A stretch of 64,000 nt of DNA from Polyangiaceae bacterium (GTDB lineage: Bacteria; Myxococcota_A; Polyangia; Polyangiales; Polyangiaceae). The translations under genes were made by a program, and so were the position numbers. The first letter of the stretch is position 1, and each line of letters starts with the position of its first letter. The notes beneath the pieces were generated by a model that did not search any database, was not told where the DNA came from, and worked only from the letters and a program-made list of their open reading frames with translations. The stretch is taken from positions 1 to 64,000 of the forward strand of contig JAKLKA010000062.1 of NCBI GenBank assembly GCA_023150915.1. Reading direction: 5' to 3'. This document shows, in pieces, positions 3,022 through 56,939 of this stretch.

Positions 3022-4385
3022 TGCGAGTCGTCACGTTTTCGATCGCGATGCTGGCGGCCCTGAGCGGTTGCAACGCCCTGTTGGGCAACGAGGAGGGCGA
3101 GCTCGTCGTGTCGTCGGGCGGCGCGGGCGGCGGTGCCACCGGCGGGGCCGCAGGCCGCGGCACCGGGGGCACCGGGGGAGGGGGCACCGGGGGCGCGGCC
3201 ACCGGGGGCGGCGGCACCGGGGGCGCGGGCACCGGGGGCGGCGGCAGCGGGGGCGGCGGCACCGGGGGCAGCGCCACGGGAGGCGCCGGCGGAGCTGGCG
3301 CGTGCGCCGTGGAGCTCGATCTGGGCGATCACCACGCGTGCGCGCGGAAGGGCGACGGAACGCTGTGGTGCTGGGGGATGAACAACTACGGCCAGATCGG
3401 CGACGGGGGCACGGCCGACAAGAAGGCCCCCGCGCAGGTTCAGGCGTTGGGCACCGCCGTGGCCGAGCTGGCCACCGGGGGCTATCACACCTGCGCGCGC
3501 AAGGGCGACGGCAGCGCGTGGTGCTGGGGCCTCAACGACTTCGGTCAGCTCGGCGACGGTACTTCGGTCAAGAAGACCGCGCCGGCAGCGGTGAAGGACC
3601 TGGGAGCCGTGGCCAATTTGACCGCGGGCACGATGCACAGCTGCGCGCGCAAGGCCGACGGCACGGCGTGGTGCTGGGGATTGAACGACGCGGGTCAGAT
3701 CGGTGACGGGACCCTGGTGAACAAACCCACGCCGGTGCAGGTGAAGGCGCTGGGAACCGTGGCCCAGCTGGCTGCAGGCGGCGCGCACACCTGCGCGCGC
3801 AAGACCGACGCGACGCTGTGGTGCTGGGGCAACAACGACCACGGCCAGATCGGCCCCGGGGGCGGCTCGCTGAGCTCGGGGCCGGTGGAGCTGACCGCCC
3901 TCGGCACCGAGACGGCCGAAGTGACTGCGGGGGCCGCGCACACCTGCGTACGCAAGACGAACGGAACGGTGTGGTGCTGGGGCGACAACGCCTTCGGCCA
4001 GCTCGGGGACGGATCGAGCACCGCCAGCGCCGCCCCGGTGCCCGTGACCGCGCTCGGTGCTTCCGTGGTCGAGGTGAGCGCCGGCGCGTCCCACACCTGC
4101 GCGCGCAAGCAGGACGGAACGCTGTGGTGCTGGGGCGACAACAACTTCGGTCAGCTGGGCGACGGCACTTACGACAAGAAGACGTCACCCGCGCAAGTGA
4201 CGTCGCTCGGAACGACCGTGGCCGAGGCCGAGCCGGGCTACGGCACCAGCTGCGCGCGCAAGGCCGACGGGACGGTCTGGTGCTGGGGACTTTCCAGCGC
4301 GCTGGGCGACGGCACGCCGGGAAGCGAAGTCTGCGGCTCCCAGAAGTGCACGCCGGCGCCGGTGAAGACCCTGCTCTGCCCGTGA
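3021..4385 (+). CDS. RCC1-repeat beta-propeller lipoprotein
   Basis: 454 residues. The start ATG at 3021 shares its A with the TGA of the previous gene. An N-terminal signal with lipobox LSGC marks a lipoprotein. A Gly/Thr-rich linker follows (about residues 34-92). The rest is seven copies of a 50-residue RCC1-like blade containing CARK...GT.WCWG.N..GQ.GDG, the expected number for a closed seven-bladed propeller. Each blade carries one cysteine in CARK (or CVRK) and one in WCW, so disulfides probably staple the blades on the cell exterior. The last blade is slightly shorter. RCC1 propellers are protein-interaction platforms; the ligand here cannot be told. It converges on the gene at 4399. 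Confidence 0.9.
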   Translation: MRVVTFSIAMLAALSGCNALLGNEEGELVVSSGGAGGGATGGAAGRGTGGTGGGGTGGAATGGGGTGGAGTGGGGSGGGGTGGSATGGAGGAGACAVELDLGDHHACARKGDGTLWCWGMNNYGQIGDGGTADKKAPAQVQALGTAVAELATGGYHTCARKGDGSAWCWGLNDFGQLGDGTSVKKTAPAAVKDLGAVANLTAGTMHSCARKADGTAWCWGLNDAGQIGDGTLVNKPTPVQVKALGTVAQLAAGGAHTCARKTDATLWCWGNNDHGQIGPGGGSLSSGPVELTALGTETAEVTAGAAHTCVRKTNGTVWCWGDNAFGQLGDGSSTASAAPVPVTALGASVVEVSAGASHTCARKQDGTLWCWGDNNFGQLGDGTYDKKTSPAQVTSLGTTVAEAEPGYGTSCARKADGTVWCWGLSSALGDGTPGSEVCGSQKCTPAPVKTLLCP

Positions 4386-11286: not shown

Positions 11287-12027
11287 CTACTTCTTGGGCG
11301 CAGCCGGCGGCGGTGCTGCGGGGGGCGGAGCCGGCGGCTTCGGCGGCGCTGCGGGCGGCTTCGGCGGCGCGGGCTTCACCGGAGGCTTCGGCGGCGTGGG
11401 CGGAGCGGCACCGGGCTTACCACCGGGCGGCGGTGGAGGCGGAGCGGCACCGGGCTTGCCACCGGGCGGCGGTGGAGGCGGAGCGGCGCCGGGCTTGCCA
11501 CCGGGCGGCGGCGTGGGCGGAGCGGCACCGGGCTTGCCACCGGGCGGTGGTGGAGGCGGAGCTGCGCCGGGCTTGCCGCCGGGCGGAGCTGCGCCGGGCT
11601 TGCCACCGGGCGGCGGCGGAGGCGGAGCTGCGCCGGGCTTGCCGCCGGGCGGAGCTGCGCCGGGCTTGCCACCGGGCGGCGGCGGAGGCGGAGCTGCGCC
11701 GGGCTTGCCACCGGGCGGAGCCGCCTTGCCACCCGGCGGCGGAGGGGGCGCAGCGGCACCGGGCTTGCCCGCCGGCGGCGGCGCGTCGGGCTTCGCGGTG
11801 TCCTTGTCGTCGCCATCGTCGTCGCCGTCGTCGTCCTTGTCGCCCTTGTCCTTGGCGGCGCCAGCGGCCGGCTTCGCGCTCTTGCTCTCTTCTTCTTCCT
11901 GGCGCAGCCCTTCTTCCGGCACGGGCTTGAACACCGGCGCAACGGGAGGAATGCTCGCTTCGCCGGCGCCCCCGCAGGCAGTGAGCAAGAACAGGACGGG
12001 CAAGGCAGACCAGCTGAGAGAACGCAT
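11287..12027 (-). CDS. Pro/Gly/Lys-repeat lipoprotein
   Basis: 246 residues. An N-terminal signal ends in the lipobox LTAC, followed by GG, so the protein is lipid-anchored. Residues 40-85 are strongly charged (Glu- and Asp-rich, with a KDDDGDDDGDDKD stretch). From about 85 to the end it consists of repeated PPPPPPGGKPGAA units with shorter PPGGKPGAA variants. There is no folded domain. It probably acts as an extended, wall- or surface-spanning tail. The repeats are nearly identical at DNA level, so length may vary between strains. A TAGGCT hexamer lies 6 bases before the ATG. The zinc dehydrogenase gene follows after 3 bases. Confidence 0.8.
   Translation of the reverse strand: MRSLSWSALPVLFLLTACGGAGEASIPPVAPVFKPVPEEGLRQEEEESKSAKPAAGAAKDKGDKDDDGDDDGDDKDTAKPDAPPPAGKPGAAAPPPPPGGKAAPPGGKPGAAPPPPPPGGKPGAAPPGGKPGAAPPPPPPGGKPGAAPPGGKPGAAPPPPPPGGKPGAAPPTPPPGGKPGAAPPPPPPGGKPGAAPPPPPPGGKPGAAPPTPPKPPVKPAPPKPPAAPPKPPAPPPAAPPPAAPKK
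11290..11775 (-). repeat. Tandem Pro-Gly-Lys coding repeats
   Basis: Nearly identical 27- and 39-base units (core ccgggcttgccaccgggcgg on the plus strand) make up the 3' two thirds of the lipoprotein gene. They stay in frame throughout. Confidence 0.85.
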
Positions 12028-39224: not shown

Positions 39225-41558
39225 ATGCGAAAAGCTGGTTGGGCGCTGGTGTTCAGCGCGTTGGTTCTGGCGCAGCCGGCCCATGCGGCGCTGACGGACT
39301 CGGAGAAGGCGCAGGTTTCGGGCTTCATCCGCTCTGGCGAGCTGAAGAATGCGGCGCGCATCCGCGCACTGGTCGCGCGCCCGGATCTGGCCGTGGACGA
39401 AGCGGCCGCGCCGCTCAGCGCCGGCTTCGCCGCCGTGCCCTTCGACCCCAAGCGCGAGAAGCTGGCGCGCGAGATCTTGCTCGGTCCCGGCTCGGCGGCG
39501 GCCCGCAGCGAGCTGACTCCGGCGCTGGTGCGGGCGCTGCTCGCCCGGGCCTCGAGCGCGTATGCGGCGATGCCCGCCAGCGAGAGCGGCCCGGAAGCAT
39601 CCAAGGCCGATCGCCTCGCGGCCGAGGCGGTTGCCATCCATCGCTTCGTCACCGACGTGATCGCCAACGCGGGTCGCCCACCGGTGGACGGGCACGACGC
39701 CAGTGCCGGCATCCGCGACGACGCGCTGAAGTCGTGCATCGAGGCGTATCGTGCGCACTTCGAGCGCCACGCGGCGATCTTGCGCCCGGGCAGCAAGCTC
39801 AGCCCGTCGCTGGTTCCGGTGCGTGCGCAAGCCAGCCTGGCGGTGGTGGACCTGTCACGGGGCTTGCTCCAGCGGCACGAAGTCTCGGCGTTGCTGGGCC
39901 TGGGCGGCGTGCGCAAGGCCGCCTTCGAGCGTCACGGCACGCTGGTCGAAGACGGCGGCAGCGCGACCGACGAGCGACTGGCAGAGGTGATCCGATTCCT
40001 CGATCTCGCGCCGCGCGCCGCCACGGAGCTGGGGCTCTGGCTGGTGAGCAAGGCCCCGGTGCGGGGGCTCGGGTCGCGCGCGGGTCGCGTGGGGGCCCGG
40101 GTCTCGCTGGGCAACAGCCGCGGGGCGCCCACGGCGGCGGCGCTCTGGCCTGAAGACGTGATCCCGTCTCGACCCGATCGCGAGCTCGGCGAGGTCGCGT
40201 ATTCCGCGGCGTGGTTCATCACCCGGGCCGCGTTCAAGGCCAAACCCCAGCTGGCCAAGACCGCGGCGCAGATCGCTACCCGCGCGGGGCGCGCCGGTGC
40301 GCCGGGCCAGCTGGCGGTCGATCTCGATTCATCGGTGCTGCCGGTGCCGGGCACGGTCGGGCCCGGGTCGCAAGCGTCGTCGGCCGAGCTGTTCGCCGTC
40401 CACTCGCTGCGCCTGCTCTTGCTCGACGCACCGCGCGCGCTCGAGCTGGCGTTGTCGCGGGCGGTGCAGGGTCGGGACGAGCCGCTGGCCGCGTTCGTGC
40501 TCGGCGCCAGCCTGCTCGCGGCCACCGGCGGCAGCGCCGACGAGGTGTGGGTCAGCCGCACCGACCAGGCCGGCGCCGTGAGCGCCGACAAGCTGACCGG
40601 CGTGAAGCTGACCAACGACCTCTTGTCGGCCTTCGAGCTGGACTCGAAGAGGGTCGAGGTCAGCCTGGGCTCGGATGGGCAGGTCGACAAGGTTCAGGTC
40701 GACGGGGCGGCCCCGCGGCTGTCCAAGCTGCGCCGCGTACGCTTCGTGCCAAAGGCCGGCGACGCCTGGCAGGTCGGCGGCCAGCGCTGGGAGAAGATCA
40801 GCGGCGCGCCCCGGGGGCTGGCGGTGGACGACGGGCGTTTCGTGCTCGGCGCCGCCGAGCCCAGCGACGGCTTCGACGCGGTGGTCACGGGTGACGACGC
40901 CACCGACGTCACCGTCCACGCCCACCTGAGCGTGAAGGGCCGCGGCGGTGGGCTGGTGGTGCGCGCGCAGGCTGGCCAGAAGAGCTACGACGGCGTGGCG
41001 CTGCTGGTGACTGCCGAGCCGTCGCCCCTGGCGACGCTGGTCTTGGTCGACGGCAAGGGCAAAGCCACCGAGCTGGCGCCGCCCGTGGCGCTGGCTGCGC
41101 CGGGCGACGCGGGCTACCTGGCCGTGCTGAGCGTGAAGGGCCAGAAGGTCAGCGCCAGCGTCGACGGCAAGAAGCTCGAGGCGAAGCTGACCCGCGGGGT
41201 CGGTTCGGGCCGCGTCGGCCTGGTGGTCCCCGCCGCCGGCACGGTCGAAGTGACCGGGTTTGCCCGCGGCGCCCCCAAGCCCGAAAAGAAGGCCGCCGAG
41301 GGGCCGAAGGCCCCCGGGGCGAAGCCCCCGGCAGCCAAGGTCGCACCCGCGGCCAAGCCCCCGGCGGCCAAGGCCGCACCCGCGGCCAAGCCCCCGGCAG
41401 CCCAGGCCGCACCCGCGGCCAAGCCCCCGGCGGCCAAGGCCGCACCCGCGGCCAAGCCCCCGGCGGCCAAGGCCGCACCCGCGGCCAAGCCCCCGGCGGC
41501 CAAGGCTGCACCGGCGGCCAAGCCCCCGGCAGGCCCTGCTCCGAAGAAGAAGCCATGA
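39225..41558 (+). CDS. Large exported protein with Ala/Lys/Pro repeat tail
   Basis: 777 residues. Signal peptide [21 protein letters not shown]. Residues about 25-450 are helical and Ala/Leu-rich, with no known motif. Residues about 460-570 carry short beta segments ([18 protein letters not shown]). Residues about 555-685 resemble a concanavalin-like/DUF1080 sandwich ([40 protein letters not shown]). The end is about eight copies of [11 protein letters not shown], a basic extended tail that could contact wall polymers or nucleic acid. Function unknown. Its stop overlaps the B12-binding gene (ATGA). Confidence 0.78.
41320..41540 (+). repeat. 33-base Ala-Pro-Lys coding repeats
   Basis: Tandem 33-base units (core gcggccaagcccccggcggc) encode [11 protein letters not shown]. 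Copies differ at only a few bases, so array length is likely to vary between strains. Confidence 0.8.
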
Positions 41559-51792: not shown

Positions 51793-53048
51793 GCCTGGTG
51801 AAGAAGTGGCTGTCGCCCACCCAGCGCATGGGTCCGGTGGATCCGGTGCTGGCGGCCATCGTGGTCGCGTTGATCGGCTTCGGCGTGGTGATGGTCTACA
51901 GCGCCAGCGTCATCGAGGCGACGGTCGTCTTCCGCGACGCGCAGTACTTCCTCAAGCGGCAAGCGATGTTCGGCGGCGCCGCGCTGGCGGTGATCTGGGT
52001 CACCTCGCGCATCGACTATCGGCGGCTGCGCCCCCTGACCTATCCGGTCTTGGGCAGCGTGTTCGTGCTGCTGGTGCTGGCGGTGATCGGCCTGGGCCAC
52101 ACCGGCGGCGGCGCAACGCGCTGGCTTCGGCTGGGGCCGATCCACGTGCAGCCCTCCGAGGCGGCCAAGCTCGCGCTGATCCTCTGGCTGGCGTACTCGC
52201 TCGAGAAGAAGCGCGAGCAGATGAAGACCTTCTCCGTCGGGATGCTGCCGCACCTGCTGATGGCGGGCGCGCTGATGCTGCTCTGTCTCAAGCAACCCGA
52301 CTTCGGCGGCGCTGTGGTGCTGCTGTTCTTGACCTTCACGCTCCTCTTCGTGGCGGGCGCGCGGGTCGGCTATCTGCTCGGGGTCGCCATGATCGGCGGT
52401 CTTGCGGCGGTCTGGCTGGTGCGCTTCACCAGCTATCGCTGGGACCGCATGCTCGCCTGGTTCAACATGAGCGAGCATCGGCAAGATCTCGCGTATCAGC
52501 CCTTCCAATCGGTGATGAGCTTCGGCTCGGGGCAGGTCGGCGGCCTGGGCCTCGGCAAGGGGCTGCAGGTCTTGTACTTGCCCGAGGCGCACACCGACTT
52601 CATCTCGGCCATCATCGGCGAAGAGCTGGGCTTCATCGGCGTGCTGGGGCTGGCAGCCACGTACTTGTTCATCGTGGTGCGCGGCGTGCGCGCGGCGCTG
52701 CTCGCCCAAGACGACTACGGCTCGTACATCGCCTTCGGGATCTCGATGCTGTTCGGCATTCAGGCGGTGGCGAACCTCGCGGTCGCCATGGCGGTGTTGC
52801 CCACCAAGGGGCTGACCCTGCCGTTCGTGAGCTATGGCGGCTCGTCGCTGTTGGTCAGCGCTGCGGCGATGGGCATCTTGCTGAACGTGACTCGGCCCCG
52901 CGAGGGGTCGGAAAATCAGCGGGTGGCCGAGCCGGGCGGGCCGAAGCCCGAGGCCAGCGCCATGCTGGTGAGCGAGGCGGGCTTCGCCGAAGAGGCCACG
53001 CAGCCGCGCCGCAGCCGCGCCGAAAGGCCGCAAGAGGTGATGTCATGA
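51789..53048 (+). CDS. ftsW: Septal peptidoglycan polymerase FtsW
   Basis: 419 residues of SEDS family, about ten transmembrane helices. Hallmarks: VMVYSAS early, QPSEAAKLALILWLAY, a large periplasmic loop with YQPFQSVMSFGSGQVGGLGLGKG, LPEAHTDFISAIIGEELGF, and LPFVSYGGSSLL. It polymerises glycan strands with FtsI at the septum. ATG 51789 overlaps the murD stop, with a GGAGAGGAGG Shine-Dalgarno sequence before it. The cytoplasmic tail of about 55 residues is longer than usual. Confidence 0.95.
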   Translation: MSLVKKWLSPTQRMGPVDPVLAAIVVALIGFGVVMVYSASVIEATVVFRDAQYFLKRQAMFGGAALAVIWVTSRIDYRRLRPLTYPVLGSVFVLLVLAVIGLGHTGGGATRWLRLGPIHVQPSEAAKLALILWLAYSLEKKREQMKTFSVGMLPHLLMAGALMLLCLKQPDFGGAVVLLFLTFTLLFVAGARVGYLLGVAMIGGLAAVWLVRFTSYRWDRMLAWFNMSEHRQDLAYQPFQSVMSFGSGQVGGLGLGKGLQVLYLPEAHTDFISAIIGEELGFIGVLGLAATYLFIVVRGVRAALLAQDDYGSYIAFGISMLFGIQAVANLAVAMAVLPTKGLTLPFVSYGGSSLLVSAAAMGILLNVTRPREGSENQRVAEPGGPKPEASAMLVSEAGFAEEATQPRRSRAERPQEVMS

Positions 53049-54211
53049 CCCGCCCGACGGTGCTGCTCGCCGGCGGCGGGACGGGCGGTCACGTCTTCCC
53101 GCTCATCGCCGTGGCCGATGCGCTCTCGGCGCTGGCGCCCGAGGTGAACCTGGTGTTCGTGGGCACCGAGCGCGGCATGGAGGTGAAGCTGGTGCCCGAG
53201 CGCGGGTACGCGCTCGAGCTGGTGAAGGTGTCGCCGATCCGCGGCGGGGGTCTGGGCGGCGCGGTGCGCGGGGTGTGGCGCGCAATGATGAGCATTCCCG
53301 AATCCAGAGCGCTGCTCGAGCGGCACGCGCCGCGGGCGGTGCTCAGCATCGGCGGGTACGCGGCGGGCCCGATCTCCCTCGCCGCGCGCCTGAAGAAGAC
53401 CCCGCTGGCGCTGATCGAGCCGAACAGCGTGATGGGGCTGGCCAACCGCCTGACGGTGCCGCTGGTACAGCGCGCGTACGTGGCCTTCCCGCAGGCGGGC
53501 CGGCACTTTGGTCGTGGGACGGCGCTGACCACCGGGGTGCCGATCCGTGGCGGCTTCGAGCCCAGGCCCTTCCGGCGGCCCGGCGACGGGCTCGAGGTGT
53601 TGGTGCTCGGTGGCAGCCAGGGCGCCAAGTCGCTGAACGAGACGGTTCCGGCGGCGCTGGGTCGGGTGGGCGCGAAGCTCAGGGTGACGCATCAGTGCGG
53701 TGCGGCGCACGCCGACGGCGTGCGGGCGACCTACGAGAAGCTCGGCGCGCGCTTCGACTGGGAAGTGGTGCCGTTCATTCAAGACGTACCCGCGGCGCTC
53801 GGTGCGGCGAACCTGGTCATCAGCCGCGCCGGGGCGAGCGCGGTCAGCGAGATCGCGGCGGTGGGGCGGCCCGCGCTGTTCGTGCCGTATCCGTACGCGG
53901 CGGGCGATCACCAGCGACACAACGCCGAGACGCTGGCTCGCGCCGGCGCGGCGGTCTCGATCGCCGCCCAGGGAGCGACGGTCGAGACGATCGCGGCCGA
54001 GGTCGAGCGCCTGGCGACGGAGCCGGGGCTGCTCGAGCAGATGGCGGCCGCTGCCGAGCAGTGGGGAAAGCCCCACGCGGCCGCCGAGATCGCGCGGGAT
54101 CTGCTCCGCCTGGCGGGCCTCGCGCTCGAGGCCGCCGGCACGACCGAGCCGCAGCGCAAGCAGGAAGCACCCGACGACGGCGCACCCAGGCTGGCCGAGG
54201 TGGCGGGATGA
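53045..54211 (+). CDS. murG: Lipid II synthase (UDP-GlcNAc transferase)
   Basis: 388 residues. GGGTGGHVFPLIAVADAL (first Gly-rich loop), LSIGGYAAGPISLAAR, ALIEPNSVMGLANR, VLGGSQGAKSLN (second Gly loop), and SRAGASAVSEIAAVGRPALFVPYP (donor site) are the MurG signatures. It converts lipid I to lipid II at the inner face of the membrane. ATG 53045 overlaps ftsW (ATGA). The last 25 residues are a variable tail. Its TGA is part of another ATGA (54208-54211), although murC starts only at 54498. Confidence 0.95.
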   Translation: MTRPTVLLAGGGTGGHVFPLIAVADALSALAPEVNLVFVGTERGMEVKLVPERGYALELVKVSPIRGGGLGGAVRGVWRAMMSIPESRALLERHAPRAVLSIGGYAAGPISLAARLKKTPLALIEPNSVMGLANRLTVPLVQRAYVAFPQAGRHFGRGTALTTGVPIRGGFEPRPFRRPGDGLEVLVLGGSQGAKSLNETVPAALGRVGAKLRVTHQCGAAHADGVRATYEKLGARFDWEVVPFIQDVPAALGAANLVISRAGASAVSEIAAVGRPALFVPYPYAAGDHQRHNAETLARAGAAVSIAAQGATVETIAAEVERLATEPGLLEQMAAAAEQWGKPHAAAEIARDLLRLAGLALEAAGTTEPQRKQEAPDDGAPRLAEVAG

Positions 54212-54243
54212 ACCGGATCTCTCGCCCCTCTGCGCTCCCTTCT

Positions 54244-54346
54244 GGCTCTCCGCAAGCGGCCGTCTTCGGCCGCGAGCGCTCTCCTCTCGCCTCCGGCTCT
54301 CCGCAAGCGCCGCGGAAGCGGCGCGAGCGCTCTCCCTCTCGTCTCC
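54244..54346 (+). repeat. Two tandem hairpin repeats between murG and murC
   Basis: Unit 1 (54244-54294) and unit 2 (54295-54346) share the flanks GGCTCTCCGCAA and GAGCGCTCTCC, but their stems differ: GCGGCCG/CGGCCGC with loop TCTT (54256-54273) against GCGCCGC/GCGGCGC with loop GGAA (54307-54324). Three of the seven base pairs change in a compensatory manner. The rest of the 54212-54497 gap shows only the murC Shine-Dalgarno sequence GGGAGG (54486-54491). Confidence 0.8.
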
Positions 54347-54497
54347 TGTCAGGGAACTCTCGCGGGCGCATGGCTTCTTTCAGAACGCCAGAGTCGCGAG
54401 GCGCCCAAGTCACCCCGACGCCAAACAAAGAATCCAAGTGCGGCCCGCGGGGACGCCTCCGGTCAGAACAGAAGCCTAGACGCGACGGGAGGCGCTC

Positions 54498-55895
54498 ATG
54501 TTTAGGGGCCGTGTCCGGCACGTGCACTTCATCGGGGTCGGCGGCATCGGGATGTCCGGGCTGGCCGAGATCCTGCGCACCCTCGAGTTCGACGTCTCGG
54601 GCTCGGACATGAAAGAGGGCGAGAACACCAACCGGCTGAAGCGGCTGGGCGTGCGGATCGACGTCGGACATCGTGCCGAGAACGTGCGCGGGGCCGACGT
54701 GGTGGTCTTCTCGAGCGCCATCGGGGCCGACAACGCCGAGATGCGCGAGGCCGCGCGGCTGGGGATCCCGATCATCGCCCGCGCCGAGATGCTGGCCGAG
54801 TTGATGCGCCTCAAGTACGGCGTGGCCATCGCCGGCAGCCACGGCAAGACCACCACCACCTCGCTGGTGGCGACGGTGCTGCGCGACGCGGGCTTCGACC
54901 CGACCGTGGTGGTGGGCGGGCGCATGGCGGCGCTGGGCTCGAACGCGCGGCTCGGGGCAGGGGACCTGCTGGTGGCCGAGGCCGACGAGAGCGACGGCTC
55001 GTTCTTGCGGCTCACGCCGACCATCGCGGTGATCACCAACATCGACGCCGAGCACCTGGACTTCTACGGCACCCACGAGCGGGTCAAGACCGCGTTCGTC
55101 GAGTTCGCCGAGCGGGTGCCGTTCTACGGCCTCAGCGTGCTGTGTCTCGACCACCCGCACGTGCAGGACATCTTGCCGCGCATTCGCCACCGTCACGTGA
55201 CCTATGGCCTCTCGCCCCAGGCCGACTACTGCGCGCGCAACGTGCGGCACTCGGGCTTGACCACCAGCTTCTTCGTCAGCCGCAAGGGCCAACCGCTGGG
55301 CGAGTTCTCGGTGCGAATGCCGGGGCAGCACAACGTGCTCAACACGCTGGCCACCATCGCCGTGGCCGACGAGCTCGAGGTACCGCTGGACGTGATGAAG
55401 AGTGCGCTGGCGGGCTTTCACGGCGTGGCCCGGCGCTTCACCGTCACCCACGAGATCGGCGGCGTGACGCTGGTCGACGACTACGGCCACCACCCGGCCG
55501 AGGTGATGGCCACGCTCGAGGCGGCCCGCAAGGTGTTCGATCAGCGGGTGCTGGTGGCCTTTCAGCCCCACCGCTACAGCCGCACGCAGCACTCGTTCGA
55601 CGAGTTCACGCGGGCGTTCAACGTCGCCGATTCGGTGATCATCGCCGACATCTATGCGGCGGGCGAGAAGCCCATCGCGGGCATCAGCGCCGAAGCGCTG
55701 GTCGACGCCATTCGCGAGCACGGCCATCACTCGGTGCGGCACGTGGGCGACAAGCGCGCCATCGCCGACGCCCTGATCCAAGAAGCAGCGCCCGGCGACG
55801 TGGTGATCGCGCTGGGCGCGGGCGACATCAACAAGATCCTGCCGCTGGTGGCCGACGGCCTCCGCGCGCGGTTCGGCGAAGGGAGCCAGGCGTGA
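54498..55895 (+). CDS. murC: UDP-MurNAc:L-alanine ligase
   Basis: 465 residues. VHFIGVGGIGMSGLAEILRTL (N-terminal Rossmann), P-loop AGSHGKTTTTSLVA, EADESDGSFLRLTP, ITNIDAEHLDFYGT, and DDYGHHPAEVMATLEAA identify MurC, which adds the first residue (L-Ala) to UDP-MurNAc. Unlike its neighbours it does not overlap the preceding gene, and has its own Shine-Dalgarno sequence 6-7 bases before the ATG. The usual next genes murB and ddl are missing; its stop overlaps ftsQ directly (GTGA). Confidence 0.95.
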   Translation: MFRGRVRHVHFIGVGGIGMSGLAEILRTLEFDVSGSDMKEGENTNRLKRLGVRIDVGHRAENVRGADVVVFSSAIGADNAEMREAARLGIPIIARAEMLAELMRLKYGVAIAGSHGKTTTTSLVATVLRDAGFDPTVVVGGRMAALGSNARLGAGDLLVAEADESDGSFLRLTPTIAVITNIDAEHLDFYGTHERVKTAFVEFAERVPFYGLSVLCLDHPHVQDILPRIRHRHVTYGLSPQADYCARNVRHSGLTTSFFVSRKGQPLGEFSVRMPGQHNVLNTLATIAVADELEVPLDVMKSALAGFHGVARRFTVTHEIGGVTLVDDYGHHPAEVMATLEAARKVFDQRVLVAFQPHRYSRTQHSFDEFTRAFNVADSVIIADIYAAGEKPIAGISAEALVDAIREHGHHSVRHVGDKRAIADALIQEAAPGDVVIALGAGDINKILPLVADGLRARFGEGSQA

Positions 55896-56806: not shown

Positions 56807-56808
56807 GC

Positions 56809-56862
56809 GGGCAACTTTCCGGATCTGGGACTGTCCCGGAATCCCTCGTGAAAAGTTGGCCC
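56809..56862 (+). other. Nested inverted repeat between ftsQ and ftsA
   Basis: Three dyads lie inside one another: GGGCAACTTT (56809-56818) with AAAGTTGGCCC (56852-56862, one bulged G), GGAT (56821-56824) with ATCC (56841-56844), and GGGAC/GTCCC (56827-56837). No T-run follows, so it is more likely an attenuator-like or protein-binding site, or a small inserted palindrome, than a plain terminator. Confidence 0.6.
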
Positions 56863-56939
56863 GGTGGGGGGGCCTCTGGCAGCGTCGGCCCTGCTCCGAA
56901 GCCCTGGAAAAAGGCGCGGTCGGAGGCGTGAGGAGAACG

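What the first reader, a model, noticed from the sequence alone, without database searches (positions are those of the whole stretch)
54244..54346. Tandem hairpins with compensatory base changes split murG from murC
Two adjacent units share flanks almost base for base but have different stems. In stem positions 4, 6 and 7 both partners change, so pairing is kept (G-C to C-G, C-G to G-C, G-C to C-G) and the loop changes TCTT to GGAA. That pattern means the RNA or DNA hairpin, not the sequence, was selected. The murG stop still forms ATGA, the overlap used at most other dcw junctions, though murC starts 287 bases on. I infer a repeat element inserted at an overlapping junction, then gained a structural role (processing, attenuation or tuning of murC-ftsZ expression).
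Basis: partly seen in the sequence, partly recalled or inferred. Interest (0 to 1): 0.7.

Follow-up and report, generated by a model that had tools for sequence, protein, structure and literature searches.

The report
Repeat-grown spacer between murG and murC
Two look-alike hairpins sit in a fast-changing, repeat-built gap between two cell-wall genes. The gap is found only in this bacterial genus among the genomes examined, grows by local duplication, and shows no good sign that the hairpins themselves are kept by selection, so it is a curiosity rather than a new RNA element.

Summary
Two 51/52-base units lie at 54244-54346, with identical flanks and different 7-pair stems, in a 286-base gap between murG and murC. 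The inference that selection on the hairpin must have produced them is not supported. The units occur nowhere else in the genome, even with free stems. A 7-pair stem is expected by chance in a spacer like this (28% of shuffles). The 'three compensatory changes' can be rewritten as one base pair lost in the stem and one gained at the loop. Template switching can make such paired changes in one mutation. What is unusual is the gap. All other dcw junctions are nearly constant in three species of the genus (each within 6 bases), while this one is 286, 552 and 735 bases, filled with different tandem repeats, and an overlap or near-overlap in most other genera examined. Its alignable 3' part evolves about as fast as four-fold sites, with one conserved block (54423-54451). 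I read it as a lineage-specific, largely neutral repeat expansion. One open lead: an ATGA start with a Shine-Dalgarno sequence opens a stop-free frame through the gap in all three species, ending on the murC start in two. Codon tests show no protein-level selection.

The parts
54212..54497 (+). murG-murC spacer, 286 bases; 552 and 735 bases in the two same-genus genomes
54244..54294 (+). repeat unit 1 with hairpin GCGGCCG-TCTT-CGGCCGC (54256-54273)
54295..54346 (+). repeat unit 2 with hairpin GCGCCGC-GGAA-GCGGCGC (54307-54324); one C longer than unit 1
54208..54211 (+). ATGA overlap at the murG stop, preceded by GAGGTGGCGGG (Shine-Dalgarno-like); GAGGT and GGATGA kept in all three species of the genus
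54423..54451 (+). only block in the 3' 130 bases that is conserved in all three species (around AAACAAAGAATCCAAGTGCGGCCCGC); possible regulatory site, function not shown
   Evidence: 21 of 26 columns, P about 0.0015 by column permutation
53045..54211 (+). murG
54498..55895 (+). murC

Best explanation
A genus-specific intra-operon spacer that has grown by tandem duplication of short GC-rich, palindrome-bearing segments and simple hexamers, and is otherwise nearly free of constraint. The two hairpins are one chance GC palindrome copied once in tandem. The core of one copy was then rewritten while its pairing was kept, most simply by a local replication event (hairpin-guided template switching or core inversion with paired one-base indels) and not by repeated selected compensation. 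The spacer is tolerated because it contains no intrinsic terminator and murC keeps its own Shine-Dalgarno sequence (GGGAGGCGCTCATG). Shown: the repeat, the lack of dispersed copies, the genus-specific length variation, the near-neutral divergence of the alignable part. Inferred: the mutational route and the reason for tolerance.
For: Gap 286/552/735 bases in three species, while the other dcw junctions differ by 0-6 bases. Overlap or near-overlap in ten other genera: -1 in seven, and -8, +4, +56 in the others. Each species carries a different repeat set: G000 51 bases x2; G002 about 102 bases x2.8 plus CCGTCT hexamers; G001 spacings 93/207/300 plus CGAGCA hexamers. The 3' 130 bases are 55-65% identical between species, like four-fold sites (57-72% in murC), whereas the ftsQ-ftsA gap is 80-92%. 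No dispersed copies: GCTCTCCGCAAGCG with up to 2 mismatches gives 211 sites against 208 for the control, and flanks with a free 18-base core match exactly only at these two places. Individual stems are within chance (P 0.28, 0.12 and 0.13). No terminator or sigma-70-like promoter. No Rfam match. Template switching can make multibase compensatory changes in one event (PMC8794818).
Against: The core differs at 10 of 18 positions while the adjacent flanks are identical, which is odd for plain drift. Palindromes at a comparable position recur in all three species. One conserved block (54423-54451) and the conserved ATGA plus GAGGT argue that not all of the spacer is free. No single exact template-switch path was found within the unit: the best has 4 mismatches over 14 bases.
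Confidence: 0.6

Rival explanations
1. Translated relay: ribosomes leaving murG restart at ATGA and translate the spacer to the murC start, which keeps the operon coupled. The reading frame is selected, the amino-acid sequence is not.
For: Stop-free ATGA frame of 248 codons in G001 (P 0.004 by dinucleotide shuffle) and 187 codons in G002 (P 0.17), both ending at the TAG inside ATGTTTAG at the murC start. Repeat spacings 51, 93, 102, 207, 300 and the hexamers are all multiples of 3. GGA-TGA and GAGGT kept in all three although GGA is 5% of Gly codons. In G000 the same frame would close on murC but for the one extra C of unit 2.
Against: Differences fall evenly on codon positions (25/25/25 and 12/13/12). 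Amino-acid identity is no higher in this frame than in the others. Codon usage is non-coding in G000 and G002 (-0.62, -0.64 against +0.25 to +0.55 for genes) and only intermediate in G001 (-0.04). The frame is shifted in G000. No Pfam match reached its cut-off. Tandem copies make the statistics less independent than they look.
Confidence: 0.2
2. Selected RNA hairpins that process the messenger or tune murC-ftsZ expression.
For: Pairing is kept although 6 of 14 stem bases differ between units. G002 (CTGGCCGC-AA-GCGGCCAG, three times) and G001 (GCAGCCGC-TC-GCGGCTGC) also have perfect palindromes in the gap, each followed by GAG.
Against: Each stem is within chance for such GC. A homologous second unit in G001 (GCCGAGGGCAGCGATGGC) has no such stem. 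The whole spacer folds no better than shuffles (z -1.15). No Rfam match.
Confidence: 0.12
3. Promoter-bearing spacer: an extra promoter for murC-ftsQ near the conserved AT-rich block 54423-54451, the upstream repeats being filler.
For: Only conserved block in the 3' part of the spacer.
Against: No sigma-70 match; other promoter types are not covered by that scan.
Confidence: 0.08

Closest known systems
Intergenic tandem repeats / VNTR-like spacers in bacterial operons
   Same: Head-to-tail copies, copy number and unit change between species, no dispersed copies
   Different: Lies inside the normally overlapping dcw operon; units carry perfect GC palindromes
REP/BIME and other small dispersed palindromic repeats
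   Same: Short GC-rich palindromic units, intergenic
   Different: No dispersed copies in the genome
Quasipalindrome template-switch products (PMC8794818; E. coli work PMC7202029)
   Same: Coordinated changes in both arms of a hairpin next to unchanged flanks
   Different: No exact single-switch path recovered here

Membership tests
REP/BIME-like dispersed palindromic repeat family | Many copies dispersed in the genome | tested here: not met
   only the two copies
REP/BIME-like dispersed palindromic repeat family | Palindromic unit in an intergenic region | tested here: met
Conserved structured RNA (cis-regulatory leader) | Covariation across species on a common alignment | tested here: inconclusive
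   The hairpin part does not align reliably across the three species; only the two units of G000 can be compared with confidence
Conserved structured RNA (cis-regulatory leader) | Fold more stable than shuffles | tested here: not met
   z -1.15
Intrinsic terminator | GC hairpin followed by a T run | tested here: not met
Protein-coding gene | Codon-position bias in substitutions and codon usage | tested here: not met
   (G001 codon usage intermediate)
Intergenic tandem repeat (VNTR-like) | Head-to-tail copies with copy number or unit differing among relatives | tested here: met

The most novel reading that the evidence does not exclude
A sequence-free translated relay: an ORF kept open and in phase between murG and murC, so that ribosomes bridge a growing repeat spacer, with selection on the frame and none on the protein.
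Probability: 0.15. Interest if true: 0.55.

Novelty: new member of a known kind. Interest (0 to 1): 0.27.

Why it matters
Compensatory changes are often taken as proof of a selected RNA structure. This case shows how a tandem copy in GC-rich DNA could mimic that with few events. The spacer itself is a natural experiment: one junction of an otherwise frozen, essential operon has been let loose in one genus. It asks how coupling of murC-ftsZ expression survives that.

Tried and rejected
Dispersed family: searched by exact flank, by 14-mer with mismatches, by flanks with a free 18-base core and by 151-base DNA; the weak hits that I inspected (L107-L120, L123-L124) show no copy of the unit. Known RNA: Rfam none. 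Protein family for the spacer ORFs: Pfam none above cut-off. One-step template switch within the unit: no exact path, although core 1 is nearer the reverse complement of core 2 (edit distance 5) than core 2 itself (7), a difference that lies in the loop only. Intrinsic terminator and sigma-70 promoter: none. Copies of the conserved 3' block elsewhere in the genome: only chance-level hits. Rho-site idea: the spacer is C-rich in G000 and G002 but not in G001, so not general. Literature: the searches gave no paper on a spacer at this junction (titles and abstracts only were read).

Full report
What is there. The 54244-54346 repeat is as described: two units, start-to-start 51, with identical 12- and 11-base flanks and different 7-pair stems with 4-base loops. 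It lies in a 286-base gap between the murG stop (ATGA, 54208-54211) and the murC start (54498).

No repeat family. GGCTCTCCGCAA occurs exactly twice in the 8.0 Mb genome. GCTCTCCGCAAGCG with up to two mismatches is no commoner than its reversed control (211 against 208). Flanks with a free 18-base core match exactly only at the two units; partial matches are 17 against 9 control in this genome, 27 against 15 in G001 and 14 against 23 in G002, and none of those listed is a second copy of the unit. A 151-base DNA search finds only chance-level similarity.

How unusual are the hairpins? In dinucleotide shuffles of each spacer, a stem as long as the best one seen arises in 28% (this genome), 12% (G001) and 13% (G002) of cases. 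The two hairpins here are tandem copies and so count as little more than one. The remaining surprise is that the copies differ at 10 of 18 core positions, with pairing kept, beside unchanged flanks. Written with indels, the change is one pair lost in the stem, one gained at the loop, and a new loop sequence. Such coordinated changes in both arms can come from a single template-switch event, a mechanism argued for RNA stems in general (PMC8794818). I could not reconstruct one exact switch, so this remains an inference.

The gap in relatives. Two other genomes of the genus are held. Across the three, the junctions of the cluster from ftsI to ftsZ are constant to within 6 bases, except murG-murC: 286, 552 and 735 bases. 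In ten other genera the same junction is an overlap or close to it: -1 in seven, and -8, +4 and +56 in the others. The gap is therefore a feature of this genus among the genomes examined, and its contents differ: 51-base units here, a 102-base unit with CTGGCCGCAAGCGGCCAG plus CCGTCT hexamers in G002, longer spaced duplications plus CGAGCA hexamers in G001. The last 130 bases can be aligned and are 55-65% identical, close to four-fold sites in murC (57-72%) and far below the ftsQ-ftsA gap (80-92%). One block, 54423-54451, stands out (21 of 26 columns conserved, P about 0.0015).

Is it coding? In G001 and G002 the ATGA frame runs without a stop to the TAG inside the murC start ATGTTTAG. The repeat spacings are multiples of three, and the ATGA and an upstream GAGGT are kept in all three species. 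Here the frame would also close on murC if unit 2 did not carry one extra C. Against this, substitutions fall evenly on the three codon positions (25/25/25), amino-acid identity is not higher in this frame (0.49, 0.49, 0.42), and codon usage is non-coding in two of three genomes. A translated protein under selection is not supported. Translation without selection on the protein is not excluded.

Background. In sampled stretches of the same genomes, intergenic DNA holds about 0.8-1.7 hairpins per kb (stem 7 or more, loop 3-8), and a few other intergenic tandem arrays exist. Gene calls for that background were crude (GC by codon position), so the rates are approximate; the call for this region, for example, missed murG. 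The local density is high here because of the duplication.

Verdict. The inference of a selected hairpin is weak. The better description is a lineage-specific, repeat-grown, largely neutral spacer in an otherwise frozen operon, with one small conserved block and an open question about translation through it.

Noticed in passing
L138 (G001:C3 about 2380890-2381560) and L139 (G001:C3 about 2378750-2379150): Same-genus genome G001 has intergenic tandem arrays of period 51 and 52 (unit GCGGTCTGCGACGCGTGCGTTGTCCGTGAGGTGGCCAACAGGCGCGTCGGA, about ten copies in the larger) with inverted repeats and no evident sequence relation to the murG-murC units.
   Followed up: partly
window 56807-56936: The ftsQ-ftsA gap is strongly conserved across three species (80-92%, long identical runs such as CTCTGGCAGCGTCGGCCCTGCTCCGA), well above four-fold sites, so it may hold a real regulatory element.
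   Followed up: partly
window 55892-55895: murC is followed directly by ftsQ with a 4-base overlap; no murB or ddl lies between them.
   Followed up: no
window 41313-41535: 33-base tandem repeat, 6.7 copies at 94% match (unit CCCGCGGCCAAGCCCCCGGCGGCCAAGGCCGCA), perhaps coding for a Pro/Ala/Lys-rich tail.
   Followed up: no
window 3339-4288: 150-153-base degenerate tandem repeats whose translation looks like RCC1-type repeats (CWGxNxxGQxGDG).
   Followed up: no
window 11389-11793: 39- and 66-base tandem repeats, apparently Gly/Pro-rich if coding.
   Followed up: no
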